Shown: positions 8,956 through 29,184 of the stretch, one piece after another
Layout: every line of letters begins with the position of its first letter
Position numbering within the stretch: position 1 is the first letter of the stretch
Source: a virus
Virus record (IMG/VR): IMGVR_UViG_3300025616_000416
Location: 1-51,252 of that record
DNA: 51,252 bases
Reading direction: 5' to 3' (one strand)
Notes under the pieces: generated by a model
Seen by the model: only the letters and a program-made list of their open reading frames with translations
Database searches by the model: none
What the model was told of the DNA's origin: nothing
Program-made: the position numbers and the translations under genes

Positions 8956-9460
8956 TTTAGATATATCGGCATCCTCTACTGGATGGTCTTTTTGTCCAGT
9001 AAAGGATGATAATATAATATCTGGAGTAATAACTACATTACCTAAATATAGTAGAGCAGAAAGACTAGTTAAATATAGGATCGAATTAACTAAGCTATTA
9101 AAAGACCTGCAACCTACACATGTAGTAATGGAAGATGTGTTTGCAGGTCTTAATCCTAAAACATTAGTCCTTCTTGCTAAATTTGCAGGTGTTACTGAGG
9201 AATGTTGTTTATCAGAGTTTGGAATAGAGCCATATATTATACACACTAATACAGTAAAATCCTATTTTAAAGTTAAAACTAAAGAACAGCTTTTTGATTT
9301 TGTGGTTACTTTATTAGACTGGCAAAAATTTAATTTTAAACGAGACAATGATATAGTAGATGCCATTTCTCAACTATTAGTTTACTATGACCAAATATTA
9401 AATGCTAAAAAGTTTAGGGAAGAAAAAGATTACGGATTTTTATATGAGGTTAATGGATGA
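8936..9460 (+). CDS. ruvC: RuvC-like Holliday junction resolvase
   Basis: A 174-residue protein if started at ATG 8936 (a TTG six bases upstream is also in frame). It has an RNase H-like fold with the acidic RuvC set: Asp9 in [16 protein letters not shown], Glu66 in HVVMEDVF, and a C-terminal Asp139/Asp142 pair in [13 protein letters not shown]. RuvC cuts four-way junctions left by recombination and replication, needed before packaging. It overlaps dnaJ at its 5' end, and its stop overlaps the start of the second HNH gene. A bacterial-type RuvC beside recA-like functions fits the recombination theme of this block. Confidence 0.9.
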
Positions 9461-10326
9461 ATAAAAAGAAATTAAACATAGCGTTTGTTAAATCATCGTT
9501 TGCATCTAAAAATTATATTCTTTTGGAAAATGAATATATAAATAATAGCACAAAGATGAATTATATCTGTCCTGATGGACACGAACATAGTATTACTTGG
9601 GGAAATTGGATACATGGTGTTGGTTGCCCTTATTGTGCTAAGTGCGCTATATATACTTATGATAATATTTTATCCGCATTTGAAAAAGAAAATTATATTT
9701 TATTATCAAAAGAATATATAAATAATATGAGTTATTTATATTATACTTGTCCAAAAGGACATAATGGAAATACAAAGTGGCATGCTTGGAATATACTTGG
9801 GCAACGTTGTAAAATGTGTTATAATGATTCCAAAAGAATTGATTTTGAACTAATTAAGAATAGTTTTATGGTTGCAGGATATTTATTATTAAGTGATAAA
9901 TATGTAGATTCTAATGCATTGTTGGATTATGAATGTTCATTAGGGCACATACATAAAATTACTCGGGGACATTGGAGTCAAGGAGTTAGGTGTCCTACTT
10001 GCCATAATTTAAGCAGATTTGGGTCTGGACATCCAAATTGGCAAGGAGGTATTTCATATGAACCATACTGTCCTATCTGGAAGGACAAAGAATACAAACA
10101 TGATATTCGTGAACGAGATGGTAATAGGTGTTTAAACCCTTACTGTGATTCTAAAAAGTCAAATGACTTAGTTATCCATCATATTGATTACAATAAAAAG
10201 AATTGTGGACCTAATAATCTAATTACTGTATGTAGAAGTTGTAATTTTAAAGCTAATATTGATAGAGAATGGCATACAGCATGGTACAATGCAATAATAT
10301 ATAACAGGTATAAAAGGAGTAAATAA
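9457..10326 (+). CDS. HNH homing endonuclease with three tandem zinc-ribbon-like modules (copy 2 of 6)
   Basis: A 289-residue member of the family, and the most diverged copy. Module 1 keeps CPDGHEHSITW and GCPYC. Module 2 is irregular: GHNGNTKWHAW has lost the second His, and the last pair is CKMC. Module 3 reads CSLGHIHKITRGHW and CPTC, with Arg in place of the first Trp. The HNH part is intact: YEPYCPIW, CLNPYC, IHHIDYNKKNC, CRSCN and REWHTAWYNAI. ATG 9457 overlaps the ruvC stop. The gene ends one base into the next start and contributes AAAGGAG as its ribosome site. Divergence of modules with a conserved nuclease suggests a different DNA target. Confidence 0.9.
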   Translation: MNKKKLNIAFVKSSFASKNYILLENEYINNSTKMNYICPDGHEHSITWGNWIHGVGCPYCAKCAIYTYDNILSAFEKENYILLSKEYINNMSYLYYTCPKGHNGNTKWHAWNILGQRCKMCYNDSKRIDFELIKNSFMVAGYLLLSDKYVDSNALLDYECSLGHIHKITRGHWSQGVRCPTCHNLSRFGSGHPNWQGGISYEPYCPIWKDKEYKHDIRERDGNRCLNPYCDSKKSNDLVIHHIDYNKKNCGPNNLITVCRSCNFKANIDREWHTAWYNAIIYNRYKRSK

Positions 10327-11522: not shown

Positions 11523-12587
11523 ATGAAGAAAATAACTATAGAATATATAAGAGAACAATTTGAGAGCGAAGGGTATACTCTTCTGTCGGAAGAGTATATC
11601 GGAGCTCATACTAAATTAGATTACAGGTGTTCAAATGGGCATGAGCATAGTATTAGATGGTACGACTGGAAATATGCGCATAGATGTCCTTCATGTGCAG
11701 GTTTATCTAAACCTAGTTTGGAAGATATTAGTAAATCATTTAAAGATAATAATTGTATTCTTTTATCTAAAGAGTATATTAATAATAGAACTAAGTTATA
11801 TTATATATGCTCTAATGGACACGAACATAGTATTAGATGGCGTGATTGGAGTAGAGGTCAAAGATGTCCAACTTGTTATGGAAATGTTAAACATACTATT
11901 AATATGATAAAGGAGTCCTTTAGTAAAGAAAATTATATACTATTGTCTAAAAATTATATTAATAATAGATCAAAACTAAATTACGAGTGCCCAAATGGGC
12001 ATAAACATTCTATTTCATGGCATGGTTGGGATGGTGCTGGTAATAGGTGCCCTTATTGTTCTATGAAAATAAAGAAAACTATAGAAGATATTAAAATTTC
12101 CTTCGAAAAAGAAGGTTATATTTTATTAACAACTGAGTATAAAAATTCAACTACTTATTTAGATTATATTTGTCCAGTAGGTCATAAACATAGTATAAGG
12201 AGATATAACTGGAGTAGTGGTATTAGATGCCCTGTTTGTGCAAATATAAATAATTCTGGAAGTAATAATTCATCATGGAAAGGAGGTATATCTTATGAGC
12301 CTTACTGTCCAATATGGAGTGACAAAGAGTATAAAAAAGATATTAAATTAAGAGACGGTAATAAATGTTTAAACCCAACATGTAATAAAAGGGATTCAAG
12401 ACTTAATATTCATCATATTGATTATAATAAAAAAAATTGTGAATATAAAAATGTAATAACTTTATGTGGAAGTTGTAATTCTTCAGCTAATAAAGATCGT
12501 GAGTGGCATACTGCTTGGTATCAAGCGCTTATGTACATGAGGTATAACTATAAGTATTCAAAATTAAAAGGAGAACTAAATGAGTAA
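11523..12587 (+). CDS. HNH homing endonuclease with four tandem zinc-ribbon-like modules (copy 3 of 6)
   Basis: A 354-residue family member with four modules (about 3-60, 61-118, 119-177, 178-235), one more than copies 1, 2, 4 and 5. Each ends in a C-P-x-C type pair (CPSC, CPTC, CPYC, CPVC). The HNH part differs from copies 1 and 2 by LHN-type segments: CLNPTC, NIHHIDYNKKNC and LCGSCNSSAN, the form also seen in copies 5 and 6. ATG 11523 has no good ribosome site; a TTGACA promoter-like element lies just upstream. A perfect 10-base inverted repeat lies at 11574-11598. The end overlaps the next gene by eight bases and supplies its AAAGGAG. Confidence 0.9.
   Translation: MKKITIEYIREQFESEGYTLLSEEYIGAHTKLDYRCSNGHEHSIRWYDWKYAHRCPSCAGLSKPSLEDISKSFKDNNCILLSKEYINNRTKLYYICSNGHEHSIRWRDWSRGQRCPTCYGNVKHTINMIKESFSKENYILLSKNYINNRSKLNYECPNGHKHSISWHGWDGAGNRCPYCSMKIKKTIEDIKISFEKEGYILLTTEYKNSTTYLDYICPVGHKHSIRRYNWSSGIRCPVCANINNSGSNNSSWKGGISYEPYCPIWSDKEYKKDIKLRDGNKCLNPTCNKRDSRLNIHHIDYNKKNCEYKNVITLCGSCNSSANKDREWHTAWYQALMYMRYNYKYSKLKGELNE
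11574..11598 (+). repeat. perfect inverted repeat inside HNH copy 3
   Basis: TATACTCTTC and its exact reverse complement GAAGAGTATA flank a five-base loop (TGTCG), about 50 bases after the start codon. The same stem with a one-base loop change occurs at the equivalent place in copy 4 (23909-23933). It codes for YTLLSEEY and has decayed in the other copies. It could form an RNA hairpin that slows translation, or a palindromic DNA site. Confidence 0.6.
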
Positions 12588-15585
12588 ATACAAAAATGTA
12601 GTAAAAGGAAACAGTACACAGAAAAAGATTAAGGTTGTTGCTTACTGCGATTCGCCCACATGTGCAACTGGTTTTGCTACAGTTTCGCGTAATATTTTGG
12701 ATGGGTTGCACAATACTGGTAGGTTTGATATCGATATTATAGCAATAAATTATTGGGGAGATCCCCACAATTTTCCTTATCGAATTTGGCCCGCTGGTAC
12801 AAATTCAGATAAGGATCCTTATGGACGAAAAAAAGCATTTGCTATGATCCAGCAAATGGATTTCGATATTTTATTTTGTCTTCAGGATACATTTATTCTA
12901 GAATTTTTACCAGAACTTCATAATAGTTTGAGAGCCAAAGGTAAAAAATTTAGATCAATATGTTATTTTCCAATTGATGGTACTCCTAAAGTACCATGGA
13001 TTCATAATGTAAATGCCTGTGATCATCTTATAGCTTATTCTGATTTTGGAAAAAGAGAGTCTATGGGTGTTTTACCTATTATGAAAGAGCCTATGGTAAT
13101 TCCACACGGTGTTAATACTAAAGAATATTTTCCAGTTGATAAGAAAGAAGTAGAAGCTTTTAGATCTCATTTTTTTGGCGCCCAGGCAAATAAATTTATA
13201 TTCACTAATGTAAATCGCAATCAACAAAGAAAAGATATACCTAGGACTATTGTAGCTTTTTCAGAGTTTCATAAACAAGCTCCAGATTCTATTTTATATT
13301 TGCATTGTTTTAGTGAGGGTACAGAAATTAGAGTATTTAATGGTATAAAAAATATAGAAGATATTACTAAAGGAGACGTAGTTCTTACTAAAAATGGAGT
13401 GTTTAAGGAAGTGTATGAGACATCTTGTAGAGAACTTAAAGAAGAAGAGTCTATAATGGAAGTATGTGTGACAGGAAGAAATAATAGTATATTGGCTACA
13501 TCAGATCATAGATTTATGGCTATAAAGCCTATGACAACTTTATGTGCTCATGATGAATGTTTGCCTATGTGCAAGAATAGATGGATTTATAGAAAAGAAA
13601 ATTGGATTTCAAATTGTGATAGAAGTATTTCTGAAAATTATATCCCAGAATGGGTAGAAACTAAAGATTTAAAAGAGGGTGATTATCTTCTTATTCCTAT
13701 ACCTAAAAATAATATAGGTAAAGTCCCAGATTACTTATATATTTCAGATGTATTTAATTTGGCATCTATAAATTATATAGAAGATGGTATATTTATAAAA
13801 ACTTCTAATCATCCTAGAACAATTAGTATTCCAAATAAGTTAAACATTACTAAGGAATTAATGAAATTATTTGGTTATTATTTGTCTGAGGGTTGTGTAC
13901 GTGGAACTATGGATACTGTACAATTTACTTTTAATATAAAAGAAGTTAAGTATGTAGATTTTGTAGTTAGTAATATAAAAAATATATTCGGTCTTACTAC
14001 TATAGTTAGACATTTTCCTGAAAAAAATACTACACAACTTACAGTATGTAGTTCTACTTTAGCAAAATTTTTTAAATCTTTATTTGGTCATTCAGCTCAT
14101 ACTAAAAAATATCCAGAATGGTTCAATTTTTTATCTGATGATAAATTTTTTGGGTTAATTACTGGAATGTTTGATGGTGATGGTCACTACACAGATAGAT
14201 TTATTGCATACAGTTCAGTATCTTTAGATTTAATAACGTTAGTAAGAGATGGTCTTCTTAGAAGAAAATTTTTCATGTCGATACGAGATACGTATAGACC
14301 AGACGGAAGTAGTTTTAATGGTTTTATGGCTACCATACATTCAGATTTAGAAAGACTATACTTAAATTTAGAGATTGATGATTTTAAACTTACTAAAGTA
14401 AATAAAGAATATTATCATTTTTTTATAGATGGCTACGTTGCTTGTAGGATACACTCAATAAAACCATCTGATTACACTGGATCTGTATACAATATGTCAG
14501 TAGTAGACGATGAGTCTTACTGCGTTAATGGTGGTTTTATAGCTCATAATTGTGCTAAAAAAGATCAGGGTTGGGATCTACCAGAGATTGTTAAATCTTA
14601 TGGGCTTAGTACAGTAAATGATGTTATTTTTCCTGAAAATTTCGGACCTAACCAAGGTTATCCAAGGAATATCGTTAACTTGATATATAATGCTAGTGAT
14701 TGTGTTATCAGCACAACTTTAGGTGAAGGTTTTGGGTTTTGCCTTCATCCTGAAACTAATATTTATACTGATTCTGGAATAAAGTGTATTAAAGATTTAA
14801 CGGTTATGGATAAAGTATTATCATCTAATGGTACTTATAACGAAGTTCAAGCCATAATGTCCAAATATCATGATGATAGTTTATATAATATTACTACTTG
14901 GATGTCTAATATCCCAATAAAATCATCACCTGAACATGGTTTTCTTACTTTAGATAATGGTAATTACACATGGAAAAAAGCTGAAAATCTTTTAGTAGGA
15001 GATCAACTTTTATTTCCTAGAAACTGTGATAAAAATTATGATTTAAATATAGATAATGAGTCAGCAAAAATTAATGATGATTATTTAATTTTACCTATAA
15101 AGAAGATAAAAGTAGAAAAATATTGCGGTAAACTAATTGATATACAGGTAGCTAATACTAACGATTTTATTGCTGAAAATGTAGTTGTGCATAATTCATG
15201 GATTGAGTCCATGGCTACTAAAACTCCAGTTATTATGCCAGGAAATACTATGATGCCTGAATTTATTACAGAAGATCGTGGATGGCTAGTAAAGAGTGGG
15301 TCAAATCCAAGTTTATTTACTGTAGTACCAAATGATAATGAGGTTGTACGACCTTTAGTTGATGTTGAAGATATGATTAGAATAATGAAAGAAATATATT
15401 CAAATTCTGAGGAAGTTAAAAGACGTACAGAAAATGCATATAGTTGGGCTACTACGCAAATGGATTGGTCTTCACACATTGTTCCTAAATGGTTAACTAT
15501 ATTTGATTCTGCTTATAAAAGTTTAATGGCTGGTGAAGTAGTTAAAGCTGAAACTAATAAGATAATTGAAACAGAAAGTTTTTAG
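12580..15585 (+). CDS. GT4-like glycosyltransferase precursor with two inteins
   Basis: The 1001-residue frame becomes about 434 residues after removal of inteins at 243-657 and 721-872. The host part is a GT-B glycosyltransferase: KVVAYCDSPTCATGFATVSR at the N-terminus (start of the first Rossmann domain), VIPHGVN (a typical acceptor/donor junction strand), FTNVNRNQQRKDI, and a C-terminal donor-binding site that reads TTLGEGFGF joined to SWIESMATKTPVIM. It probably moves a sugar from a nucleotide-sugar donor to a phage or host acceptor. AAAGGAG from the end of the HNH gene precedes ATG 12580. The second intein splits the E-x7-E type donor motif, so activity must depend on splicing. Confidence 0.9.
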   Translation: MSKYKNVVKGNSTQKKIKVVAYCDSPTCATGFATVSRNILDGLHNTGRFDIDIIAINYWGDPHNFPYRIWPAGTNSDKDPYGRKKAFAMIQQMDFDILFCLQDTFILEFLPELHNSLRAKGKKFRSICYFPIDGTPKVPWIHNVNACDHLIAYSDFGKRESMGVLPIMKEPMVIPHGVNTKEYFPVDKKEVEAFRSHFFGAQANKFIFTNVNRNQQRKDIPRTIVAFSEFHKQAPDSILYLHCFSEGTEIRVFNGIKNIEDITKGDVVLTKNGVFKEVYETSCRELKEEESIMEVCVTGRNNSILATSDHRFMAIKPMTTLCAHDECLPMCKNRWIYRKENWISNCDRSISENYIPEWVETKDLKEGDYLLIPIPKNNIGKVPDYLYISDVFNLASINYIEDGIFIKTSNHPRTISIPNKLNITKELMKLFGYYLSEGCVRGTMDTVQFTFNIKEVKYVDFVVSNIKNIFGLTTIVRHFPEKNTTQLTVCSSTLAKFFKSLFGHSAHTKKYPEWFNFLSDDKFFGLITGMFDGDGHYTDRFIAYSSVSLDLITLVRDGLLRRKFFMSIRDTYRPDGSSFNGFMATIHSDLERLYLNLEIDDFKLTKVNKEYYHFFIDGYVACRIHSIKPSDYTGSVYNMSVVDDESYCVNGGFIAHNCAKKDQGWDLPEIVKSYGLSTVNDVIFPENFGPNQGYPRNIVNLIYNASDCVISTTLGEGFGFCLHPETNIYTDSGIKCIKDLTVMDKVLSSNGTYNEVQAIMSKYHDDSLYNITTWMSNIPIKSSPEHGFLTLDNGNYTWKKAENLLVGDQLLFPRNCDKNYDLNIDNESAKINDDYLILPIKKIKVEKYCGKLIDIQVANTNDFIAENVVVHNSWIESMATKTPVIMPGNTMMPEFITEDRGWLVKSGSNPSLFTVVPNDNEVVRPLVDVEDMIRIMKEIYSNSEEVKRRTENAYSWATTQMDWSSHIVPKWLTIFDSAYKSLMAGEVVKAETNKIIETESF
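13306..14550 (+). mobile_element. intein 1 of glycosyltransferase with LAGLIDADG endonuclease
   Basis: A 415-residue intein, from Cys243 (CFSEGTEIRV) to Asn657 (GFIAHN) with Cys as +1 residue. Block B is TSDH. The DOD endonuclease motifs are FGYYLSEGCV and ITGMFDGDGHY. Its removal joins SILYLH to CAKKDQGWDL, restoring a smooth GT4 strand and loop. All standard splicing residues are present. Confidence 0.92.
14740..15195 (+). mobile_element. mini-intein (intein 2) of the same glycosyltransferase
   Basis: A 152-residue intein, from Cys721 (CLHPETNIYTDSG) to Asn872 (ENVVVHN) with Ser as +1. Block B reads SPEH. No LAGLIDADG motif is present, and the length matches the splicing domain alone. It sits inside the donor-binding motif GEGFGF/SWIESMA. 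It is either an element that lost its endonuclease or one fixed by its place in an active site. Confidence 0.92.
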
Positions 15586-15593
15586 GAGGTATA

Positions 15594-17186
15594 ATGAAAG
15601 TAAGAATAATGAAAGAATGTGGGTATGAAGAATCACTTTATGGGTTATCATTATCTTTTAAAGATAGAGAAATAACTTTCAAGGACTGGTGGACAGCAGA
15701 ACGTTTTAAAAAGTTGAGTAGTAAAGCTACTATACAGCATAAAATGGATGGAGGACATAATAAATTTTTAGAATCTATTCAAATGTGGGTTGAAGTTGAG
15801 GCTCCTAGAGGATGGTGGAGTGAATTTGATACTTATCGTTTAGCTACAAAACAAAGTGAATGCTATGATGATATTACAGAAATTCTTACGAATAGCGGTT
15901 GGAAATTATTTAAAGATGTGCACATGGGAGATAAAGTATGTACTTTAAATATGACTAATAAATTTATAGAGTATCAATATATTACTAATTATATATCATC
16001 TTTTTATCAAGGTGATATGATTAGGTTTAAAGGACGTAGTTATGATTTAAAAGTTACTCCTAATCATAATATGGTAGTTAAAAATAGAAGGGGGTCTAGT
16101 TTAAGACTACTAAAAGCTGTTAATTTTACACATAATCATGCTATACCGAAAGGCGGTATATGGGCTGGTAACAATATAAATCAGATATGTATACCAAAAA
16201 TAAAAAATCATCTTGGTTCTGAGGATATATTTATAAATACCGATGTAATGTTAAAATTTATGGGTATATTTATTTCTGAAGGGTATTTATATAACTATTT
16301 AAAAAAAAGTAATTATATTATAGGCGTATGTCAGTCTAAAAAATCAATTAATTATAATGAAATAGATGAATTTTTTAAAGTATTTCCTTTTAAAGTGTGT
16401 AAACAAAGTAAAGGTAATGATGTAAAGTGGCTTATACATTCAAAACAATTATATAGGTATTTAGAAAATCAAAAAGGAGCACTTCATAAATATATACCTA
16501 CTTGGATACTTAATCTTCCAGTAGATAAATTAATTTTGTTTGAGAAGTGGATAATGATGGGTGATGGATGTATAACTAACGGTCATCATATTTACATATC
16601 TATAAGTAAGACACTTATAGATAATATGCAAGAATTATGGTTAAAGATAGGGTCTAACTCTAATATAAGAGTGCATCAGAAAATGATAGGTAAGAGAAAT
16701 ATTGTATGGAGTATTTCAAAACATAAAACATTATATTCATATGTATTAAAAAATAATATATTAAAAGAACCATATAGTGGTAATATTTATTGTGTTGAAG
16801 TTCCTAATCATGTAATAATGGTAAGAAGAAATAATAAAATAACTTGGTCTGGTAATTCAACTATGCATACTATTCAAAAGAGACAACTTTTACCATATGA
16901 TTTTGAAGATGGGACAGACAGCCGACAAATAGATATTTTTAATGAAATACTTAAAGAAGAAACAAGTAATTTCACTGAAAAAGGTTTACTTATAGGTGAT
17001 AGTTTAGAGAGGGTAAAATGGAATTTACCTGAGGGATTTTTGCAGACTAGATTGGTTTGCGTTAATTACAAGACATTAAGAAATATGTTTATACAAAGAC
17101 ATAGACATAGATTAAAACAATGGCACACTTTTATAGACAGTGTTATTGAACAATGTGAGCACCCAGAGTTATTGCCAGAAGTATGA
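15594..17186 (+). CDS. ThyX-like protein precursor with intein
   Basis: The 530-residue frame gives about 198 residues once the intein (90-421) is removed. The spliced sequence contains GGHNKFLESI, WWSEFDTYR, then LATKQSE joined to STMHT, and later CVNYKTLRNMFIQRHRHRLKQW. These match a phage/prophage family related to ThyX, the flavin-dependent thymidylate synthase. The ThyX signature RHR-x7-S appears as TYR-x7-S, so two of the three basic/aromatic positions differ while Arg, Ser and spacing are kept. It may be a divergent dUMP-binding enzyme or a modified-base synthase; standard ThyX activity is uncertain. AGGAGG precedes ATG 15594, nine bases after the glycosyltransferase. A terminator follows the stop. 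Confidence 0.75.
   Translation: MKVRIMKECGYEESLYGLSLSFKDREITFKDWWTAERFKKLSSKATIQHKMDGGHNKFLESIQMWVEVEAPRGWWSEFDTYRLATKQSECYDDITEILTNSGWKLFKDVHMGDKVCTLNMTNKFIEYQYITNYISSFYQGDMIRFKGRSYDLKVTPNHNMVVKNRRGSSLRLLKAVNFTHNHAIPKGGIWAGNNINQICIPKIKNHLGSEDIFINTDVMLKFMGIFISEGYLYNYLKKSNYIIGVCQSKKSINYNEIDEFFKVFPFKVCKQSKGNDVKWLIHSKQLYRYLENQKGALHKYIPTWILNLPVDKLILFEKWIMMGDGCITNGHHIYISISKTLIDNMQELWLKIGSNSNIRVHQKMIGKRNIVWSISKHKTLYSYVLKNNILKEPYSGNIYCVEVPNHVIMVRRNNKITWSGNSTMHTIQKRQLLPYDFEDGTDSRQIDIFNEILKEETSNFTEKGLLIGDSLERVKWNLPEGFLQTRLVCVNYKTLRNMFIQRHRHRLKQWHTFIDSVIEQCEHPELLPEV
15861..16856 (+). mobile_element. intein in ThyX-like protein with LAGLIDADG endonuclease
   Basis: A 332-residue intein, Cys90 (CYDDITEILTNSG) to Asn421 (KITWSGN) with Ser as +1. 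Block B is TPNH. The endonuclease motifs are MGIFISEGYL and WIMMGDGCIT. The penultimate residue is Gly rather than His, and the end segment EVPNHVIMVRRNN is like that of GT intein 17833-18888; the two form a related SGN-ending group. The +1 Ser is the Ser of the ThyX-type motif. Confidence 0.92.
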
Positions 17187-17193
17187 AATGATT

Positions 17194-17226
17194 AAAATAA
17201 GGGTCATATTATTGACCCTTATTTTT
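17194..17226 (+). terminator. Rho-independent terminator
   Basis: A perfect 13-base stem (17194-17206 with 17213-17225) around a six-base loop TATTAT, with GGGTCA/TGACCC at its top and a run of T at the base (17222-17226). It begins eight bases after the ThyX-like stop. It should end the upstream operon; a promoter follows 15 bases later. This is the best terminator in the window. Confidence 0.92.
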
Positions 17227-17240
17227 ATTTAAACTTAGTA

Positions 17241-17268
17241 TTGACAAATTGATATTATGTATTATATT
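17241..17268 (+). promoter_or_regulatory. sigma-70-type promoter
   Basis: TTGACA (17241-17246) and TATATT (17263-17268) with a 16-base spacer. It lies between a strong terminator and the next gene, about 50 bases upstream of ATG 17320, which has its own GGAGGAGG-like ribosome site. The spacer end ATGTAT before the -10 is identical to that of the promoter at 48486. The host vegetative RNA polymerase is the likely reader. Confidence 0.85.
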
Positions 17269-17319
17269 AGTTGTATCAGTGATTAAATAGAGTAAATGTT
17301 AAATGGAGGAGGAATATAG

Positions 17320-20300
17320 ATGGAAATAAAAGGCATAAAATTTATTTCGTGTGTAGAAGACGGTAGTGGATATGCTGCGGCGGCTAGGAAAAATATAATT
17401 GCACTATATAAACTAGGAATACCACTTACTATTAAAACTGTATCATTTGAACCAGCTAGACCAGACTTAGGTGAAGATGGAAAAATTATTAGATCTCTTA
17501 TAGATAAAGATATTGATTATAATATTATATTTTGTCAACTAACTCCTGAATGGTGGGCTCAACATAAAGAACGAGGAAAATTTTTTGCAGGATTTACTAT
17601 TTGGGAAACTAGTAAATTACATCATTCGTGGGCTAAATATATTAACGATACTGCTGATCTATGTATGGTAGGATGTGATTGGAATGTTGGTGTGTTTAAA
17701 GAAAGTGGTGTTACAGTTCCAATTGTTAATGTTCCACATGTTATGGATATAAATGAATTTAAAGATATAGAACCTTATAATATTAATGGTGTTGCTGATG
17801 AAACATATATGTTTTATTTTATAGGTCAGTGGTGTTATGATGAACAAACTAGAGTTTTAACTAAAGGAGGTTTTAAATATTTTAAAGATTTATTATATGA
17901 AGATGAAATTGCAACTTTAAATAAAGAAAATGATAAATTAGAATATCATAAACCTGATAAAATAGTAAAATTTAGAAGAAAAGATAAAATGCTACATTTA
18001 AATAGTGGTGGTCAATATGATGTGTGTGTAACACCAGATCATAAAATGGTTGTTAAAACTAAATATGATGAATCATGGCAACTTAAACCTTTAAATGAAC
18101 TTTTAGCAAAAACTACAGATGGTAAATTAAAAGTTAGTAATATATATAGATCCAAAAAGAATTGTATTTGGGAAGGTCAAGAAGAAGAATTTTTTTATCT
18201 TTGCAATAAAGAAGATGTTACTATTGATTCAAAAAAGATTCGGATGGATGATTTTTTAGAATTTTTTGGATGGTATTTATCTGAAGGTTCACTCGAAAAA
18301 TCTACTAATTATTATAGAGTAGTAATAACTCAGTTAAAGAGTGAGCAGTATAAAAAAGAAATTTGGGAATGTATAGAAAGAATGGGTTTTACTCCAGTAA
18401 ATCATAACAATAAAGACATTTTATTTAATTCAAAATATTTATATTTTTATTTACTTGAATTTGGTAAATGTTATGAAAAATTTATTCCTACATGGTTAAA
18501 GGATTTAAGTTCTGACCAGATTAAGATTTTTCTTAATTCATTAATTAAAGGCGATGGTAGTTTTTCAAAGAATGGTAGTTGGATGAAATACACTACTACT
18601 TCTAAAAAATTAGCAGAAGATGTTCAAGAGTGCTTATTAAAAGTTGGATTTTCAGGGTCTATTTCTACTTGTGACCCAACTAAGAACAAATATGGAATGA
18701 TAGATGGAAGATTAATAAAAGGTACAAGGTTACAATATACGATATCTGTTAATAAACACCAAAATGAACCTTCTTTAAGTCGTGCAAGATTAGATGAAAT
18801 TGATTATGATGGTTATGTTTATTGTGCTTCTGTTAAGAATCATACAATGCTAGTGGAAAGAAATGGTAAAATACTTTTTTCTGGTAATACTGAGCGAAAG
18901 AATGTCTTATCTACAATAAAAACATATTGGAGAACTTTTAGGAGAGGTGAAGATGTAGCTCTTGTAATGAAAACACATAGAAGTGATTATAGTGATGGAG
19001 AAAAAGATGCAATACGAACCACTATTAGAAGATTAAAACATGCTTGTCCTATGGAAGGGTATTCATATCCACCTATTTATTTAGTGCTAGATATGCTAAG
19101 TGATGACGAGATGAAAGGTTTACATGCTAGAGGAGATTGTTATATAACTTTAGATAGAGGTGAGGGATTTGGTTTATCAACTGCTACTGCTGGTGCTGCA
19201 GGTAACCCAGTAATTGCTACTAATTTTGGTGGCTCTACTGAATATTTGAAGGAAGATAATAGTTATTTGGTAGATTTTGTAGAAGTATGCTGTCACGGTA
19301 TGCCGTGGTGTATGTCTTTGAATTCATTAGTAAAAACAGAAAGTGGCTATCTAAAAGCTAGTAGTTTACAGGAAGGTATTAGTATTTATAATAAAAATCT
19401 TAAACTAAAAAATATAAATAAAGTAGAATTTAGACCTATAAAAGAAGAAGAAGATATGTATTCTATAAAATATTACTCTATGTCCGACCCAGTAGAACTT
19501 ACTGGGCAACATAAACTTTATGTAGTGGAAAATAGTATACCAGTTAATAAAAAAGTTTGTGATATAAATGCAAATGATTATTTATATGTACCAACACCAT
19601 CAAAATTAGATATATTCGATAGTAAAATAAATATAAATGGAATTGAATTTGAAGGCGAGTCTTTAAGTAGATTATTATATTTATGTGGATTATACCTAGC
19701 AGAAGGTTATGTTTCTAAACATAGAACATATATTGGATTTTCTTTTAATATAAATGAAAAATTTACTTTAGCTAATAAATGTAAAACATATATGGAGGAA
19801 TTTTTTGGAAAACATATAAGCCATATATATGAACGAGATTTAGTTGACAGAAACGGGTGTGAAATTATTTTTTATGGTAAAGAATTAATTGAGTTTTTTA
19901 TGAGTAATTTTGGTACAGGAAGTCATGATAAATTTATATCTAATAAAATTAAATATAATTTTTTTAATATAGATCTTATTCGTGGTTATTGGGATGGGGA
20001 TGGGCATATTAGAAAGGAAGGATATAAAAATAAAAGTTTGAATATGAAAAGAATAAATCCAGAATGTTCTGCTGAAACAGCTTCATTTTCTTTGTCTACA
20101 GATTTGAGAGATGTATTACTTTCATTGAATATTGTACCATCTTTAAGAAGAAGTAAAAGAACCGATGGTAGGATTAGTTATATATTTTCAATTTCTGATG
20201 AGGAGTTTGATACTATTTTAGATGTTAAAGCTAAAAGAGTTAAGAGTAGGTATAAGAAAAAAATAACAGGTGGATTTGGTGTTTTAATAACTAAAAAAGA

Positions 20301-20601
20301 AATTATCGAGGATTATAAAGATCTTGTATGTAGTATTTCAGTTGATATAGATGATGAGTTTGTAGAAGATGGTGGTAGTTACATATTGAATGGAATAGCT
20401 TCAAGTAATTCAAGATGGTATAGTTTAGACCAGTATTGGGCTTTTCCTAGCGAAAAACATGCTTCTCAACTTATGAGATCTGTTTATGATGATCAGAATG
20501 AATCTATTGCACGTGGAAAAAAATTACAAAAATATATCGGTGAAACTTTAAATTGGAAAGTAATAGGTCAAAGAATTATTGATGGAATAAGGAGTGTGTA
20601 A
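17320..20601 (+). CDS. GT-B glycosyltransferase precursor with two inteins
   Basis: A 1093-residue frame reduced to about 374 residues by removing inteins at 172-523 and 664-1030. The host part starts DGSGYAAAARKNIIAL and has FAGFTIWETSKL and VNVPHVMD. The spliced strand FYFIGQW-TERKNVL begins the C-terminal domain, followed by the donor site YITLDRGEGFGLSTATAGAAGNPVIA with FGGSTEYL. This is a GT4-like transferase related to the one at 12580 but without an intein at its GEGFGL motif. The second junction joins HGMPW to SRWYSLDQYWAFP. GGAGGA precedes ATG 17320. The promoter at 17241 makes it the first gene of the long modification operon. The acceptor is unknown. Confidence 0.9.
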   Translation: MEIKGIKFISCVEDGSGYAAAARKNIIALYKLGIPLTIKTVSFEPARPDLGEDGKIIRSLIDKDIDYNIIFCQLTPEWWAQHKERGKFFAGFTIWETSKLHHSWAKYINDTADLCMVGCDWNVGVFKESGVTVPIVNVPHVMDINEFKDIEPYNINGVADETYMFYFIGQWCYDEQTRVLTKGGFKYFKDLLYEDEIATLNKENDKLEYHKPDKIVKFRRKDKMLHLNSGGQYDVCVTPDHKMVVKTKYDESWQLKPLNELLAKTTDGKLKVSNIYRSKKNCIWEGQEEEFFYLCNKEDVTIDSKKIRMDDFLEFFGWYLSEGSLEKSTNYYRVVITQLKSEQYKKEIWECIERMGFTPVNHNNKDILFNSKYLYFYLLEFGKCYEKFIPTWLKDLSSDQIKIFLNSLIKGDGSFSKNGSWMKYTTTSKKLAEDVQECLLKVGFSGSISTCDPTKNKYGMIDGRLIKGTRLQYTISVNKHQNEPSLSRARLDEIDYDGYVYCASVKNHTMLVERNGKILFSGNTERKNVLSTIKTYWRTFRRGEDVALVMKTHRSDYSDGEKDAIRTTIRRLKHACPMEGYSYPPIYLVLDMLSDDEMKGLHARGDCYITLDRGEGFGLSTATAGAAGNPVIATNFGGSTEYLKEDNSYLVDFVEVCCHGMPWCMSLNSLVKTESGYLKASSLQEGISIYNKNLKLKNINKVEFRPIKEEEDMYSIKYYSMSDPVELTGQHKLYVVENSIPVNKKVCDINANDYLYVPTPSKLDIFDSKININGIEFEGESLSRLLYLCGLYLAEGYVSKHRTYIGFSFNINEKFTLANKCKTYMEEFFGKHISHIYERDLVDRNGCEIIFYGKELIEFFMSNFGTGSHDKFISNKIKYNFFNIDLIRGYWDGDGHIRKEGYKNKSLNMKRINPECSAETASFSLSTDLRDVLLSLNIVPSLRRSKRTDGRISYIFSISDEEFDTILDVKAKRVKSRYKKKITGGFGVLITKKEIIEDYKDLVCSISVDIDDEFVEDGGSYILNGIASSNSRWYSLDQYWAFPSEKHASQLMRSVYDDQNESIARGKKLQKYIGETLNWKVIGQRIIDGIRSV
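17833..18888 (+). mobile_element. intein 1 of second glycosyltransferase with LAGLIDADG endonuclease
   Basis: A 352-residue intein, Cys172 (CYDEQTRVLTKGG) to Asn523 (KILFSGN) with Thr as +1. Block B is TPDH, and the endonuclease motifs are FGWYLSEGSL and LIKGDGSF. Its SGN terminus and the preceding VKNHTMLVERNGK match the ThyX-like intein, so the two share ancestry although their hosts do not. The insertion follows the strand GQW at the start of the donor domain. Confidence 0.92.
19309..20409 (+). mobile_element. intein 2 of second glycosyltransferase with LAGLIDADG endonuclease
   Basis: A 367-residue intein, Cys664 (CMSLNSLVKTESG) to Asn1030 (NGIASSN) with Ser as +1. Block B is TGQH and the DOD motifs are LCGLYLAEGYV and IRGYWDGDGHI. 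The penultimate residue is Ser rather than His. Two other Cys lie just upstream (VCCHGMPW), but the GMPW-W junction and intein homology favour Cys664 as the first residue. Confidence 0.88.
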
Positions 20602-23214: not shown

Positions 23215-23865
23215 ATGAAGCATAGATTAATACACAGTGTATTTGTAAAGAATGAGGCTCATTGTATAAGTAACATGTTAGAATCTATATTACCCTACGT
23301 TGGTGATAGCTACATACTTGTGGATAATACTACAACTGATAATACCAGAGAAATAGCTAAAGCACATGGGTGTCATGTTAAAGATTTTAAATTTGAAAAC
23401 TTTGGCAAAGCTCAAAATACTCTATTTTCATGGGTAAAGGATTTTTCAGATTGGAGCTTCAATATGGCACCAGATGAAACCATATCAAAAGAGTTTGGTG
23501 AAAACTTATTGAAACTTATAGACGATAATCAGAATAGTAAAGTAGATGGTTTTCACTTTCCAAGAAGGCACTGGTTAGATTTAGAAATGAAAAATGAGTA
23601 TACAGAAGTTAAGTGGTATCCTGATGTACAATTAAGATTACTAAGAAATGATTATCCACGAATACATACTGTTAAATATGTTCATGAACCCATTATAGGT
23701 CTGCGTGGATCTGTTGTTTGTATGAAATTTGATCTGAATCATTTCAATTTATATTGGAAAGGAAGGATGGAGTATACTTTGGATAAGATGAATACTCTTT
23801 ACAATAGTTTGATGGCTTTAGAAAAACAGGAAGGAGGCAAAAATATCTGGCCAGATGGGGACTAA
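23215..23865 (+). CDS. family 2-type glycosyltransferase (GT-A)
   Basis: A 216-residue protein with a GT-A start: HSVFVKNEAHCISNMLESI, then YILVDNTTTDNTREIAKAHG (nucleotide-binding strand and loop) and NMAPDETISKEF, where the Asp-Glu pair takes the place of the DxD metal site. AGGAG precedes ATG 23215. Its last 11 bases overlap the start of HNH copy 4, so the C-terminal residues (EGGKNIWPDGD) may have been altered when that gene inserted. It likely adds one sugar in a glycan built by this cluster. Confidence 0.85.
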   Translation: MKHRLIHSVFVKNEAHCISNMLESILPYVGDSYILVDNTTTDNTREIAKAHGCHVKDFKFENFGKAQNTLFSWVKDFSDWSFNMAPDETISKEFGENLLKLIDDNQNSKVDGFHFPRRHWLDLEMKNEYTEVKWYPDVQLRLLRNDYPRIHTVKYVHEPIIGLRGSVVCMKFDLNHFNLYWKGRMEYTLDKMNTLYNSLMALEKQEGGKNIWPDGD

Positions 23866-24709
23866 ACTTAATATAGAATATATAAGATCAGAATTTGAGA
23901 AATATGGGTATACTCTTCTATCGGAAGAGTATACCGGTAGTAAAAATAAACTATACTATAGATGCACTTATGATCATGAGCATAGTACTGTTTGGGATAG
24001 TTGGAAACAAGGAAAAAGATGTCCAACTTGTGCGGATATTAAATTAACTTATGAATTTGTAAAACAATCTTTTGAGAGTGAAGGTTATACTTTAGTTTCT
24101 AAGGAATACATTAATAGTGGAAGCAGGCTAAATTATGAATGCCCTAAAGGTCACAAACATAGTATAGTATGGGATAATTGGAAACAAGGTAGTCGATGTT
24201 TAACTTGTGCTGGTAATGTTAATCTTACTATAGAGTATGTAAAACAATCTTTTAATAAGGAAGGTTATATTCTTTTATCTAAAAAATACATTAACAACCA
24301 TACTAAGTTAGATTATATATGTTCTAATAATCATGAACATTCTATGGTTTGGATTAATTGGAAAAAGGGTAAAAGATGTCCAACTTGTGCTGATATAAAA
24401 TTTTCAGGTTCAGGGCATCCAAACTGGAATGGTGGAACTTCTTATGAGCCATACTGTCCAATTTGGAGTGACAAAGATTATAAGGAAGATATAAAATTAA
24501 GAGATGGAAATAGATGTCTTAATCCTGGTTGTTGGAAAAAAGATAATATTATTGCTATCCACCACATAGACTACAACAAGAAAAGCTGTAGTCCTAAAAA
24601 TCTTATCACAGTATGTAGGAGTTGTAATGCTAGGGCAAATAAAGATCGTGAGTGGCACACAGCATGGTATCAAGCACTGATGTATAGGAGATATAAATAT
24701 GAATACTAA
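23855..24709 (+). CDS. HNH homing endonuclease with three tandem zinc-ribbon-like modules (copy 4 of 6)
   Basis: A 284-residue family member with three modules ending CPTC, CLTC and CPTC, then the HNH part with YEPYCPIW, CLNPGC, IHHIDYNKKSC and LITVCRSCNARAN. The second module (24041-24199) is nearly identical in DNA to the first module of copy 5, about 16 differences in 159 bases by eye. A perfect inverted repeat lies at 23909-23933. The nearest AGGAGG is about 20 bases before ATG 23855, so translation probably depends on ribosomes ending the upstream gene. The tail carries AGGAG for the next gene and overlaps it by 11 bases. Confidence 0.9.
   Translation: MGTKLNIEYIRSEFEKYGYTLLSEEYTGSKNKLYYRCTYDHEHSTVWDSWKQGKRCPTCADIKLTYEFVKQSFESEGYTLVSKEYINSGSRLNYECPKGHKHSIVWDNWKQGSRCLTCAGNVNLTIEYVKQSFNKEGYILLSKKYINNHTKLDYICSNNHEHSMVWINWKKGKRCPTCADIKFSGSGHPNWNGGTSYEPYCPIWSDKDYKEDIKLRDGNRCLNPGCWKKDNIIAIHHIDYNKKSCSPKNLITVCRSCNARANKDREWHTAWYQALMYRRYKYEY
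23909..23933 (+). repeat. perfect inverted repeat inside HNH copy 4
   Basis: TATACTCTTC and GAAGAGTATA flank the loop TATCG, at the same position in the gene as the repeat in copy 3 (11574-11598). The stems are identical and the loops differ by one base. It encodes YTLLSEEY. Whether it is kept as an RNA hairpin or only reflects recent shared ancestry is not clear. Confidence 0.6.
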
Positions 24710-25712
24710 AATAGTTCAAGTAGGATGCGGCATATGGGGAAAGAATTTGTTAAGAACTTTAAATAGTCTTAATGTTCTTTCTGGAGTTTTTGACTTAGAC
24801 AAAGAATCTTTGATAAATTTTACAAAGCAGAAGATCTATAGGGGAGTTTATTTTGATACAGATTGGGAAAAGTGTCTTGATAGAGACGAAGTTAAAGGTG
24901 TTGTTATTGCTACACCACCGAAAAATCATTTTGAAATAGCAATGAAAGCTCTTCAACATGATAAACATATATTTGTAGAAAAACCTATTGCTACAAGTTT
25001 GGAAGAAGCAGAAGCTATAGTTAAGTATGCTAAAAGTAAAAATTTAATAGTTATGGTGGGTCATATTTTTTTGTACGCACCGGAAATTTTAAAGCTAAAA
25101 GAAATTATAAATAGTGAAGCCTTTGGAAAGGTTCATTATGTTTACACACAAAGATTAAACCTTGGTCAAATACAATCTTGTGGGGTTCTTTCGGATCTTT
25201 TACCACATGATATTTCTATCATAGATTTTCTTTTAGATAGAACATGTAACAGTGTATCAGCATTTGGAATGAAGAATGTATTAACCAATGTTGAAGATGT
25301 AGCATTTGTAATAATGGATTATGGTGATGATATCAAAGCTCATCTTCATCTTAGTTGGCTAGATCCTCATAAAGTAAGGAGTACTGTTGTAGTAGGCGAT
25401 AAACAAATGGCTGTATGTGACTCTATTAACAAAACAATAGCTATATACAATAAAACAGTGGACTTAAGCAAGCTTCAGTCTGAAACCTATTTGGATTATT
25501 CAAGACATCTTTTAAGCTATAAGTATGGAGATGTAGTCTATCCTTATATAGAAACATGGGAGCCATTGGTTAAAGAGTGCCAAGAATTCATTTCGTGTAT
25601 AGAAGAAAATAGACAGCCTCTAAGTAATGGTGATGTTGGGGTGAACGTAGTTAAAGTTTTAGTCGCGGCTCAAAAATCATTATCTGACAATGGCTGGTGG
25701 AAAAAAGTATGA
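24699..25712 (+). CDS. Gfo/Idh/MocA-type oxidoreductase
   Basis: A 337-residue NAD(P)-dependent sugar dehydrogenase-like enzyme. The Rossmann motif is KIVQVGCGIWGKNLLRTL (residues 4-21), followed by VVIATPPKNHFEIAMKAL and the family signature VEKPIATSLEEAEAIV, whose Lys is catalytic in relatives. LLPHDISIIDFLL matches the His-bearing motif of the C-terminal domain. Enzymes of this family often act on UDP- or dTDP-sugars to make 3-keto intermediates for later transamination, which fits the DegT gene at 31308. The start lies inside HNH copy 4, which supplies the ribosome site. Confidence 0.9.
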   Translation: MNTKIVQVGCGIWGKNLLRTLNSLNVLSGVFDLDKESLINFTKQKIYRGVYFDTDWEKCLDRDEVKGVVIATPPKNHFEIAMKALQHDKHIFVEKPIATSLEEAEAIVKYAKSKNLIVMVGHIFLYAPEILKLKEIINSEAFGKVHYVYTQRLNLGQIQSCGVLSDLLPHDISIIDFLLDRTCNSVSAFGMKNVLTNVEDVAFVIMDYGDDIKAHLHLSWLDPHKVRSTVVVGDKQMAVCDSINKTIAIYNKTVDLSKLQSETYLDYSRHLLSYKYGDVVYPYIETWEPLVKECQEFISCIEENRQPLSNGDVGVNVVKVLVAAQKSLSDNGWWKKV

Positions 25713-26527
25713 TATCCGCGCATCTAATAACTCATCAGTGTGTTATACTCGACTATTGTGTAGAATCTACTATAAGATGTATGATGGGTCTATGTGATGA
25801 CATATACATTAATGATGGAAGTTCTACGGATGGAACTTTAGATATTTTGTATTCTCTTCAGAATGAATATGGTAAAGGTAGAATAAAGTTATTTGTAAAG
25901 GATTGGCAACATAATAGACAAATGTGGGCAAATGAAAAGAATTTCCTACTTGACAAAATGCCAATCGATGCTTATATTCTCGCTATAGATGCTGATGAGG
26001 TTCTAAATGAAAACGACTTTGACCAGATTAGAAAAGCAGTTAGTATGGAGATTCCGGCTATTGCGTTTAATGTTATTCACTTCTATGGAGTTCCAACTCA
26101 TTATATTGAGGGACCTGCTTGGTATAAACAGCATACACGCCTCTGGAGGCACTCTACCGGCATTAGACTTTTACACAGGAATAATGGTTGTGCTGATGAT
26201 TTAGTGTGGGCAGATGGTTTTCCAGCTCATTCAGGACGCAATATTAATTGTGGAGCCAGTATTTATCATTATGGTAATTGTAGAGATCCAAAAGCATTGG
26301 GTATGAAAGCTAAAAAAGCCGATGATCTATATCAGTATAGTAATGTATATGAGGGTGGTAAGATAGCATCTCCTAGATCTTTTACATACGCATTTGATTC
26401 TGTTGGTGCTAAAATTTTTAGTGGTGCCCATCCAAAATATATTGCGGACTGGTATAATAGACATGTTAATCAGGATACGTATTTTAATGCTCAAGATGGT
26501 GAAACTAATAAACTTTGGTGTTTTTAA
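25709..26527 (+). CDS. family 2-type glycosyltransferase (GT-A)
   Basis: ATG 25709 overlaps the previous stop (ATGA), and this is preferred over an in-frame GTG at 25697. The 272-residue protein has the GT-A elements AHLITHQCVILDYCVEST, IYINDGSSTDGTLDIL and the DxD-type motif ILAIDADEVL. A His/Trp-rich middle (WYKQHTRLWRHSTG) resembles lipopolysaccharide-type glycosyltransferases that act on surface glycans. No membrane helix is evident, so it probably works in the cytoplasm. Its partner genes suggest it uses the modified sugar made by this cluster. Confidence 0.87.
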   Translation: MISAHLITHQCVILDYCVESTIRCMMGLCDDIYINDGSSTDGTLDILYSLQNEYGKGRIKLFVKDWQHNRQMWANEKNFLLDKMPIDAYILAIDADEVLNENDFDQIRKAVSMEIPAIAFNVIHFYGVPTHYIEGPAWYKQHTRLWRHSTGIRLLHRNNGCADDLVWADGFPAHSGRNINCGASIYHYGNCRDPKALGMKAKKADDLYQYSNVYEGGKIASPRSFTYAFDSVGAKIFSGAHPKYIADWYNRHVNQDTYFNAQDGETNKLWCF

Positions 26528-26539
26528 AAGGAGAGGAAT

Positions 26540-27163
26540 ATGGTTAGTACTTACAATACATTTATTCATCCAACATCAGTGGTAGAGACAACAGATATAG
26601 GTTATGGAACTTACATAGGTCCGTTTACATATATATCTGATAGAGTTAAAATAGGAAATAATTGTAGAATATATTCAGCATCTATAGGACTACCTGGAGA
26701 ACATCCTAATGGGGCTAAGGATGGAGGTGGTATTATTGAGATAGGTGACAATGTGGAAATAAGAGAGTATGTTACTATTAATACACCACTTTTTACTGAT
26801 AGAACTTTAGTAAGTAAAGGTTGTTATCTTATGGCTAAGTCTCATGTAGGTCATGATGCCAAGCTCGCTGAAAGAGTAGTTCTTCATACTGGGGCAATTA
26901 TAGGTGGGCATTCTGAGATAGGACGTTACTGTTATATGGGTCTTAATTGTTCTACTCACCCATTTGCTAAGCTAGGAGATTTCTGTATAGTAGGAGCAAA
27001 TGGTGTTTATAAAGGTGAATCACCTGCAGCTATAGTATGGGCAGGAGTTCCATGTAAGCCATTAAAAGTTAATAGGGTAGGTTTAGATAGACATGCTTTA
27101 CCTAAAGAGAAATATTTATTAACTGAAATAGCAGAAACTTTTTTAGCATCGATTAAAAAATGA
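26540..27163 (+). CDS. LpxA-like hexapeptide-repeat acyltransferase
   Basis: A 207-residue left-handed beta-helix protein with AAAGGAGAGG before ATG 26540. Hexapeptide repeats run from residue 8 to about 160 (IHPTSVVETTDIGYGTYIGP, VKIGNNCRIY, VEIREYVTIN and so on). The GHDAKLAERVVLHTGAIIGG segment contains the His usual at the acyl-CoA/ACP site. The order is like that of UDP-GlcNAc acyltransferase LpxA and sugar N-acetyltransferases. In a sugar cluster with an aminotransferase, the likely role is N-acylation of an amino sugar. The start of the following gene overlaps its stop. Confidence 0.88.
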   Translation: MVSTYNTFIHPTSVVETTDIGYGTYIGPFTYISDRVKIGNNCRIYSASIGLPGEHPNGAKDGGGIIEIGDNVEIREYVTINTPLFTDRTLVSKGCYLMAKSHVGHDAKLAERVVLHTGAIIGGHSEIGRYCYMGLNCSTHPFAKLGDFCIVGANGVYKGESPAAIVWAGVPCKPLKVNRVGLDRHALPKEKYLLTEIAETFLASIKK

Positions 27164-28161
27164 ATAAAAAGATTAAACTACTGTATATATTTTCCAAATC
27201 TGAACTATGTGTTAATGCCCATATAATTAAATTTTTACAGTCCAAAAATATAGAAATAATACCGCAGGCTATTCAAGCAGTAAATAGTTATGGTATAGAT
27301 GCAAAGCAGTTTATGAACGCAGGATTCTGTAAAAGACATATATTTGAAAAATATGATTATATTTTATGGGCTACACATAGCGCTACGATGCCTGAATTTA
27401 GATATTTTCAAAAGAATGTGAAGCCTAGAGTAGGATTCATAGACATAGAGCATGATTTATTTGCTAATGATTTACCTGAAAATTGTTTAACTTATGGTAA
27501 GTCATTATTGGTAACTTTTCAAAAACGTCATTATGAAAATGCTATAAAATTACTTAATGATGGAAGAAGTATTATAAATGCTAAGTGGCCAAAATTAAGT
27601 ATTATGTATTATAGTATGTCTTTTAATGATATAGATAGATGGAATGATGTTATTTTAATAGGTACTGGTATTTGGAATGGTATAAATATACCCTTAGACG
27701 GAATATTTATACCGTTTCATAAAGTATGGTATAAAAAATATACTAGTGATTGGCATGTTAATGGTATAGAAATGCTTCCAGAACAATTTAATGGACCTAT
27801 AGGTAGTAAGTATTGTACTGATGTTTGTAAATTTTTTATGACTATGGGTAGTAGTTGTTACCAAGACGCATTATTATTTGGAAGCATTCCTATACTTATG
27901 CCTGGAACTATTACTAAAGATTCCATGATAGATGATATACTATCTCAGGTTGAAGTTAGACTATGGCAACCTCCTGGTATAAAGTCGTTTAAATGTGTAA
28001 CAACTAGTAATTTAACAGAGAAAATAGCATTTCTTAAAAATGATTATGATTTATATAAAAAAATTCAAAGAGAACTTTTTTTAGAGTGGTTCGATGAAGA
28101 TTATTATTCATTGCCACATGCATACAATGTTATTTATAATTTTATTAAGGAGACAGCATGA
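27160..28161 (+). CDS. putative GT-B fold glycosyltransferase
   Basis: A 333-residue protein starting at ATG 27160 in an ATGA overlap. It begins KIKLLYIFSKSELCVNAHI, like the first strand and loop of a GT-B fold. Near the C-terminus FFMTMGSSCYQDALLFGSIPILMPG resembles the donor site of GT-B enzymes, where a Ser-rich loop and helix precede a strand ending in Pro. The middle is not recognised. Two facts support a glycan role: fold hints and the position between an acyltransferase and a nucleotidyltransferase. It could equally be a polyol-phosphate or other GT-B-like transferase. Confidence 0.6.
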   Translation: MNKKIKLLYIFSKSELCVNAHIIKFLQSKNIEIIPQAIQAVNSYGIDAKQFMNAGFCKRHIFEKYDYILWATHSATMPEFRYFQKNVKPRVGFIDIEHDLFANDLPENCLTYGKSLLVTFQKRHYENAIKLLNDGRSIINAKWPKLSIMYYSMSFNDIDRWNDVILIGTGIWNGINIPLDGIFIPFHKVWYKKYTSDWHVNGIEMLPEQFNGPIGSKYCTDVCKFFMTMGSSCYQDALLFGSIPILMPGTITKDSMIDDILSQVEVRLWQPPGIKSFKCVTTSNLTEKIAFLKNDYDLYKKIQRELFLEWFDEDYYSLPHAYNVIYNFIKETA

Positions 28162-29169: not shown

Positions 29170-29184
29170 TTTGGAGGTAATATT

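What the first reader, a model, noticed from the sequence alone, without database searches (positions are those of the whole stretch)
12580..20601. Four inteins in two glycosyltransferase genes
Known inteins are mostly in DNA metabolism and terminase proteins. Here both GT4-like enzymes carry two each, at the first donor-domain strand, in the GEGFGF/SWIE donor motif, and after GMPW. This implies that the glycosyltransferases are conserved and important enough in this phage group for elements to persist in their active sites.
Basis: partly seen in the sequence, partly recalled or inferred. Interest (0 to 1): 0.65.

Follow-up and report, generated by a model that had tools for sequence, protein, structure and literature searches.

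The report
Four inteins in two phage glycosyltransferases
Two neighbouring sugar-transfer enzymes of an uncultivated bacterial virus are each interrupted by two self-splicing mobile elements (inteins), and relatives show that the enzyme pair is a repeated target with six insertion sites, a kind of host protein in which phage inteins do not seem to have been described.

Summary
ORF 12580-15585 (1001 aa) carries inteins of 415 and 152 aa; ORF 17320-20601 (1093 aa) carries inteins of 352 and 367 aa. IMG/VR relatives prove the insertions: the 72%-identical homologue L008 lacks both GT1 inteins and GT2-b, with flanks joined exactly.

Across 89 distinct GT1 and 81 GT2 sequences, 30 inteins occupy six sites (two in GT1, four in GT2), mostly at conserved donor-site motifs (random-site P = 3e-4). 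Each site has its own intein family, except GT1-b, which holds two. Occupancy is sporadic on the extein trees, and several inteins are more alike than their host genes. GT1-b of the window is a mini-intein that lost its endonuclease. This is a normal homing cycle; the inteins are ordinary.

What is new is the host protein. Homologues in deposited phage genomes are uninterrupted at these sites, and the phage-intein survey I could read lists only nucleic-acid proteins. Fungal chitin-synthase inteins are known, so a glycosyltransferase host is not unprecedented. 'Conserved' is supported; 'important' is only inferred. Splicing was not tested.

The parts
12580..15585 (+). GT1: GT-B/GT4-like glycosyltransferase precursor, 1001 aa; spliced product 434 aa
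   Evidence: intein-free homologue L008 72% identical over 1-434; GT-B model of the L008 protein, pLDDT 91.7, best PDB match 3OY2
13306..14550 (+). Intein GT1-a, 415 aa, Cys1...His-Asn|Cys+1, two LAGLIDADG motifs (LFGYYLSEG, ITGMFDGDG)
   Evidence: C-terminal 59 aa match the solved intein PI-PkoII; allele at the same site in L029/L169, 49% identical
14740..15195 (+). Intein GT1-b, 152 aa mini-intein without endonuclease, Cys1...His-Asn|Ser+1, inside the E-x7-E donor motif
   Evidence: aligns at 60-69% with 380-383 aa endonuclease-bearing inteins at the same site
15594..17186 (+). ThyX-like thymidylate synthase gene lying between GT1 and GT2
   Evidence: Pfam Thy1 E 5e-4 (below cut-off), phrog_85 thymidylate synthase
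15861..16856 (+). ThyX intein, 332 aa, same intein clade as the GT2-a and GT2-d inteins
   Evidence: clade support 100/100
17320..20601 (+). GT2: GT-B/GT4-like glycosyltransferase precursor, 1093 aa; spliced product 374 aa
   Evidence: intein-free homologues 40-57% identical; GT-B model of a homologue, pLDDT 95.5, best PDB match 3OY2
17833..18888 (+). Intein GT2-a, 352 aa, Cys1...Gly-Asn|Thr+1, LAGLIDADG endonuclease
   Evidence: alleles at the same site in L008, L037, L013, L177, L189, L190, L196; endonuclease dN 0.071, dS 0.88 against L037
19309..20409 (+). Intein GT2-b, 367 aa, Cys1...Ser-Asn|Ser+1, LAGLIDADG endonuclease
   Evidence: alleles at the same site in L021/L144, L151, L152
11523..12587 (+). 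Free-standing CapR/HNH-type endonuclease gene overlapping the GT1 start by 8 bases; candidate intronless-homing neighbour
   Evidence: Pfam CapR E 8e-9; clusters with other free-standing endonuclease genes of the window; the family directly precedes GT1 in several relatives

Best explanation
GT1 and GT2 are conserved, paired GT-B/GT4-like glycosyltransferase genes of a group of uncultivated large phages. Each is invaded by two class-1-type inteins. The precursor is translated in one frame, then each HINT domain joins the flanking exteins through Cys1, the terminal Asn and the Cys/Ser/Thr +1 residue, giving the 434- and 374-aa enzymes (inferred; not tested). The intact LAGLIDADG endonucleases of GT1-a, GT2-a and GT2-b cut intein-free alleles of co-infecting relatives and spread the element by gene conversion (inferred from sporadic, site-specific, partly horizontal inheritance). 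GT1-b is at a later stage of the same cycle: it lost its endonuclease but kept the splicing domain (shown by alignment). Persistence needs no function beyond a conserved target sequence at the active site, where loss must be exact and mutation of the target is costly.
For: Junction residues, open frames and exact extein lengths. HINT and LAGLIDADG matches and solved-intein matches for three of the four. Empty sites in the close relative L008 for GT1-a, GT1-b and GT2-b, with flanking DNA joined exactly. Thirty inteins at six sites among 89 GT1 and 81 GT2 sequences. Site-specific clades: 33-88% identity within a site (mostly above 49%), about 22-34% between sites. Sporadic occupancy: GT1-b 9 filled needs 9 changes, GT2-a 8 needs 6, GT2-c 4 needs 4, GT2-b 4 needs 4. 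Inteins more alike than exteins at GT2-a, e.g. 88% vs 74% for window/L037, with lower dS too (0.61 vs 1.19 and 0.85). L132/L026 and L169/L029 have 92%-identical exteins, yet the first is filled at b and the second at a. The GT1-b mini-intein aligns with endonuclease-bearing alleles. Purifying selection covers both splicing and endonuclease parts of GT2-a (dN/dS 0.14 and 0.08). Related inteins sit in ordinary hosts elsewhere: RecA, NrdA, ThyX, terminase, portal.
Against: No splicing or cleavage was shown. GT2-a and GT2-b lack the usual penultimate His (Gly-Asn, Ser-Asn), although relatives at those sites share this. Most intein-free GT1 genes have Met, not Cys, at the GT1-a +1 position (81 of 93 rows, some duplicates), so that site can be invaded only with co-conversion or in the few Cys/Thr alleles. 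Sampling favours contigs long enough to hold the genes.
Confidence: 0.93

Rival explanations
1. The inteins have become regulatory: splicing is conditional (redox, metal, temperature or time in infection) and delays activity of the glycosyltransferases until late in infection.
For: Insertion at donor-site motifs would keep the precursor inactive; both neighbouring enzymes are interrupted; the GT1-b mini-intein persists without an endonuclease; conditional splicing is reported for other inteins (abstracts of PMC6195587, PMC7360933).
Against: Occupancy is sporadic: 79 of 89 GT1 and 66 of 81 GT2 sequences have no intein, and close relatives differ in which site is filled. A conserved switch should be conserved. 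Inteins in general prefer active sites.
Confidence: 0.04
2. The insertions no longer splice and the genes are dead or give split proteins.
For: Two of the four lack the penultimate His; no expression data exist.
Against: Frames are intact across all four insertions, exteins on both sides stay conserved, and dN is far below dS in exteins and in the GT2-a intein. Splicing residues are kept in alleles of distant relatives.
Confidence: 0.02
3. The insertions are assembly chimeras.
For: The window is a metagenomic contig.
Against: A near-identical contig from another record carries GT1-b, GT2-a, GT2-b and the end of GT1-a, and other contigs carry diverged alleles at the same codons.
Confidence: 0.01

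Closest known systems
Phage inteins surveyed in mycobacteriophages (Kelley et al. 2016, PMC5050341)
   Same: HINT splicing domain with optional endonuclease, insertion at conserved functional motifs, several sites per gene, sporadic distribution.
   Different: That survey lists 13 host-protein groups, with no glycosyltransferase, and states that all the phage intein-containing proteins bind nucleic acid. Here the hosts are a pair of glycosyltransferases with six sites.
Fungal chitin-synthase inteins (CHS, Green et al. 2018, PMC5784728)
   Same: Inteins inside a glycosyltransferase.
   Different: Chitin synthase is an unrelated GT-A-type membrane enzyme (background knowledge), in fungi; here GT-B/GT4-like enzymes in phages.
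ThyX inteins of phages (e.g. Corynebacterium phage P1201)
   Same: GT2-a, GT2-d and window ThyX inteins form one supported clade (100/100); P1201 ThyX is among the matches to the GT2 precursor.
   Different: A different host gene and insertion site; about 30% identity between the sites.
Chlorovirus glycosyltransferase B736L (PDB 3OY2)
   Same: Best solved relative of both GTs by sequence (E 1e-22, 2e-16) and by fold.
   Different: 17-18% identity, eukaryotic virus, no intein.
Tetrasphaera phage TJE1 and Synechococcus phage S-CBS4 glycosyltransferases
   Same: Homologues of GT1, 38% and 31% identical.
   Different: Uninterrupted at both GT1 sites; no GT2-like partner is annotated directly beside them.

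Membership tests
Intein (class 1) | In-frame insertion in a conserved host protein, with intein-free alleles of the same protein | tested here: met
Intein (class 1) | HINT splicing domain | tested here: met
   Intein_splicing E 3.7e-8 (GT1-a), 2.2e-14 (GT1-b), 3.3e-7 (GT2-a), 6.6e-5 (GT2-b); only GT1-b passes the curated cut-off
Intein (class 1) | Cys or Ser at position 1, terminal Asn, Cys/Ser/Thr at +1 | tested here: met
   All four in the window and the alleles listed
Intein (class 1) | Block B T/S-x-x-H | tested here: met
   TSDH, SPEH, TPDH, TGQH read directly from the sequences
Intein (class 1) | Penultimate His (usual, not universal) | tested here: inconclusive
   Present in GT1-a and GT1-b; Gly in GT2-a and Ser in GT2-b, shared by alleles in relatives
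Intein (class 1) | Protein splicing activity | not testable with these tools
   Needs expression
LAGLIDADG homing endonuclease (intein-borne) | Two LAGLIDADG motifs with acidic residues | tested here: met
   Met for GT1-a, GT2-a, GT2-b (LAGLIDADG_3 above cut-off; motifs read); absent in GT1-b
LAGLIDADG homing endonuclease (intein-borne) | Site-specific DNA cleavage and homing | not testable with these tools
   Only the distribution pattern was tested
GT4-like glycosyltransferase | GT-B fold | tested here: met
   Models of intein-free homologues match GT4 structures at Foldseek prob 1.00
GT4-like glycosyltransferase | E-x7-E donor motif | tested here: inconclusive
   GT1 met (EGFGFSWIE after splicing). 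GT2 of the window keeps only the first Glu (EGFGLSTAT); several GT2 relatives have both. GT2 is therefore only called GT4-like.
GT4-like glycosyltransferase | Sugar-transfer activity, donor and acceptor | not testable with these tools
   Acceptor unknown

The most novel reading that the evidence does not exclude
The interrupted glycosyltransferase pair is a timed switch: inteins at donor-site motifs of both enzymes hold them inactive until a signal in infection releases splicing, so that glycosylation starts late.
Probability: 0.05. Interest if true: 0.75.

Novelty: new member of a known kind. Interest (0 to 1): 0.5.

Why it matters
It widens the range of phage proteins known to host inteins from nucleic-acid enzymes to sugar-transfer enzymes, and offers a natural data set (six sites, 30 alleles, full-length to mini, with matched empty sites) for studying homing. 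It suggests that a conserved active-site target is what inteins need, not a role in DNA metabolism. It also warns that annotation of such genes will go wrong unless inteins are recognised.

Tried and rejected
Nucleotide search of deposited phages with 12 kb of the window: no match. GT1 homologues in 84,980 prokaryote species genomes: one distant hit (32%), on a 4.5-kb contig of a metagenome-assembled genome, so GT1 looks virus-borne (the pattern search reaches a limited distance). phrog_36001, which matched across the GT1-a junction, was considered as a known intein-bearing GT family; it also matches the PolA intein, so the match is probably to the intein and was not counted. The idea that site GT1-b was invaded twice independently was tested: its two intein types are about 24-34% identical and type II groups with GT2-c, the homologous position in the paralogue, but support is 88/79 and the AU test does not reject one GT1-b clade (p 0.288), so this stays a suggestion. 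The first extein trees counted duplicate loci as empty and inflated the changes; they were rebuilt without duplicates. Terminase searches found no match in six relatives; two 296-kb relatives carry one. The host was not determined.

Full report
OBSERVATION. Both ORFs are present at the stated coordinates. The four inteins are nt 13306-14550 (415 aa), 14740-15195 (152 aa), 17833-18888 (352 aa) and 19309-20409 (367 aa); the joined exteins are 434 and 374 aa. Taken alone, all four match the Pfam intein splicing domain, the three long ones also match LAGLIDADG_3, and three match solved inteins by sequence (GT2-b does not). All start with Cys, end with Asn and are followed by Cys, Ser or Thr. The penultimate residue is His in GT1-a and GT1-b but Gly in GT2-a and Ser in GT2-b, and alleles in relatives share this.

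EMPTY SITES. Relatives were sought with the spliced proteins and with profiles of intein-free relatives. L008 is 72% identical in GT1 and lacks both GT1 inteins; its GT2 has the site-a intein only. The DNA flanks of the window, joined, align without gap to the empty sites of L008 at GT1-a, GT1-b and GT2-b. A near-identical second contig carries the same inteins where it overlaps.

A HOT SPOT WITH SIX SITES. After removal of duplicates, 89 GT1 and 81 GT2 sequences were compared, window included. GT1 has sites a (LYLH|C; window, L169) and b (GEGFGF|S, inside E-x7-E; window and eight others). GT2 has d (FDG|SGY; three), a (QW|TERK; window and seven others), c (GEGFGL|C, inside E-x7-E; four) and b (GMPW|S; window and three others). 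That is 30 inteins. Four in one GT pair, as in the window, is the highest load seen in this sample, the next being three (L151, L196). The counts are rough: contigs are fragments, truncated intein-free genes were filtered out, and near-identical contigs may remain.

WHERE THE SITES LIE. AlphaFold2 models of intein-free homologues are confident (pLDDT 91.7 and 95.5) and match GT-B/GT4 enzymes, best 3OY2, the chlorovirus enzyme B736L (by sequence). From the secondary structure of the models: GT1-a and GT2-a follow donor-domain strands, GT2-a just before the ERK residues; GT1-b and GT2-c sit at the start of the E-x7-E helix; GT2-d is at the start of the first helix of the N-terminal domain; GT2-b is in a C-terminal loop. 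No coordinates were available, so distances to the donor were not measured. The six sites are more conserved than random sites (P = 3.4e-4).

DYNAMICS. In the intein tree each site is a clade except GT1-b, which has two. GT2-a, GT2-d and the ThyX intein between the two GT genes form one supported clade, so one intein lineage has reached several genes. GT1-b type II lies nearest GT2-c, the homologous position in the paralogue, with modest support. On the extein trees occupancy is scattered: GT1-b needs 9 changes for 9 filled, GT2-a 6 for 8, GT2-b and GT2-c 4 for 4 each, GT2-d 2 for 3, GT1-a 2 for 2. At GT2-a the window and L037 inteins are 88% identical while the exteins are 74%, and synonymous divergence is lower in the intein (0.61 vs 1.19 and 0.85). 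L132 and L169 have 92%-identical exteins with different sites filled. The window GT1-b intein aligns at 60-69% with 380-383-aa inteins at the same site but lacks the whole endonuclease. The GT2-a endonuclease itself is under purifying selection (dN 0.071, dS 0.88).

SETTING. GT1 and GT2 are mostly adjacent and follow a block of primase, DnaJ, RuvC-like and PD-(D/E)XK genes in many relatives. Downstream in the window lie genes of sugar metabolism (oxidoreductase, hexapeptide transferase, DegT aminotransferase, two family-2 glycosyltransferases), methyltransferases and a tail-spike-like gene. The acceptor is unknown: virion, host surface and DNA all remain possible.

LITERATURE AND NOVELTY. Kelley et al. 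2016 (PMC5050341) list 13 groups of intein-containing mycobacteriophage proteins, none a glycosyltransferase, and state that all bind nucleic acid. Searches for papers holding intein and glycosyltransferase found no phage case, within an open-access library that lacks Novikova et al. 2016. Green et al. 2018 (PMC5784728) list four chitin-synthase inteins in fungi. In 50,697 phage records the spliced GT1 and GT2 proteins match homologues in single uninterrupted pieces in the rows listed (all 18 GT1 records, 40 of 126 GT2 records). If GT1 or GT2 acts on DNA, the rule of nucleic-acid-binding hosts would not be broken.

JUDGEMENT. Shown: insertions, junctions, empty sites, distribution, selection, endonuclease loss. 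Inferred: splicing, cleavage, homing, inactivity of the precursor, importance of the enzymes. The elements are ordinary inteins in an unusual host.

Noticed in passing
window 1456-2520, 15861-16856, 37772-39049, 43883-45004, 45536-46744: Five more inteins, in RecA, ThyX-like, DNA polymerase I and the B12-type ribonucleotide reductase (two): nine inteins, 3176 aa, in 51 kb. The first reductase intein ends in Gln before Cys, not Asn.
   Followed up: partly
window 3314-4195, 9457-10326, 11523-12587, 23855-24709, 39646-40548: Free-standing CapR/HNH-type endonuclease genes, several next to intein-bearing genes (after RecA, before GT1, after PolA).
   Followed up: partly
G001:21497-21928 (record of L030): A further intein match in an 836-aa ORF of the near-identical 72-kb record, apparently outside the window.
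   Followed up: no
window 17320-20601, extein EGFGLSTAT: GT2 of the window has Thr in place of the second Glu of E-x7-E; several relatives keep Glu.
   Followed up: partly
window 23215-32420: Sugar-metabolism cluster (GFO/IDH/MocA oxidoreductase, hexapeptide transferase, DegT aminotransferase, two GT family-2 enzymes) around a tail-spike-like gene with an S74 chaperone domain.
   Followed up: no
G002 (record of L008, 105 kb): One intein-domain match only, against seven in the 72-kb sister of the window: intein load varies widely in this virus group.
   Followed up: partly
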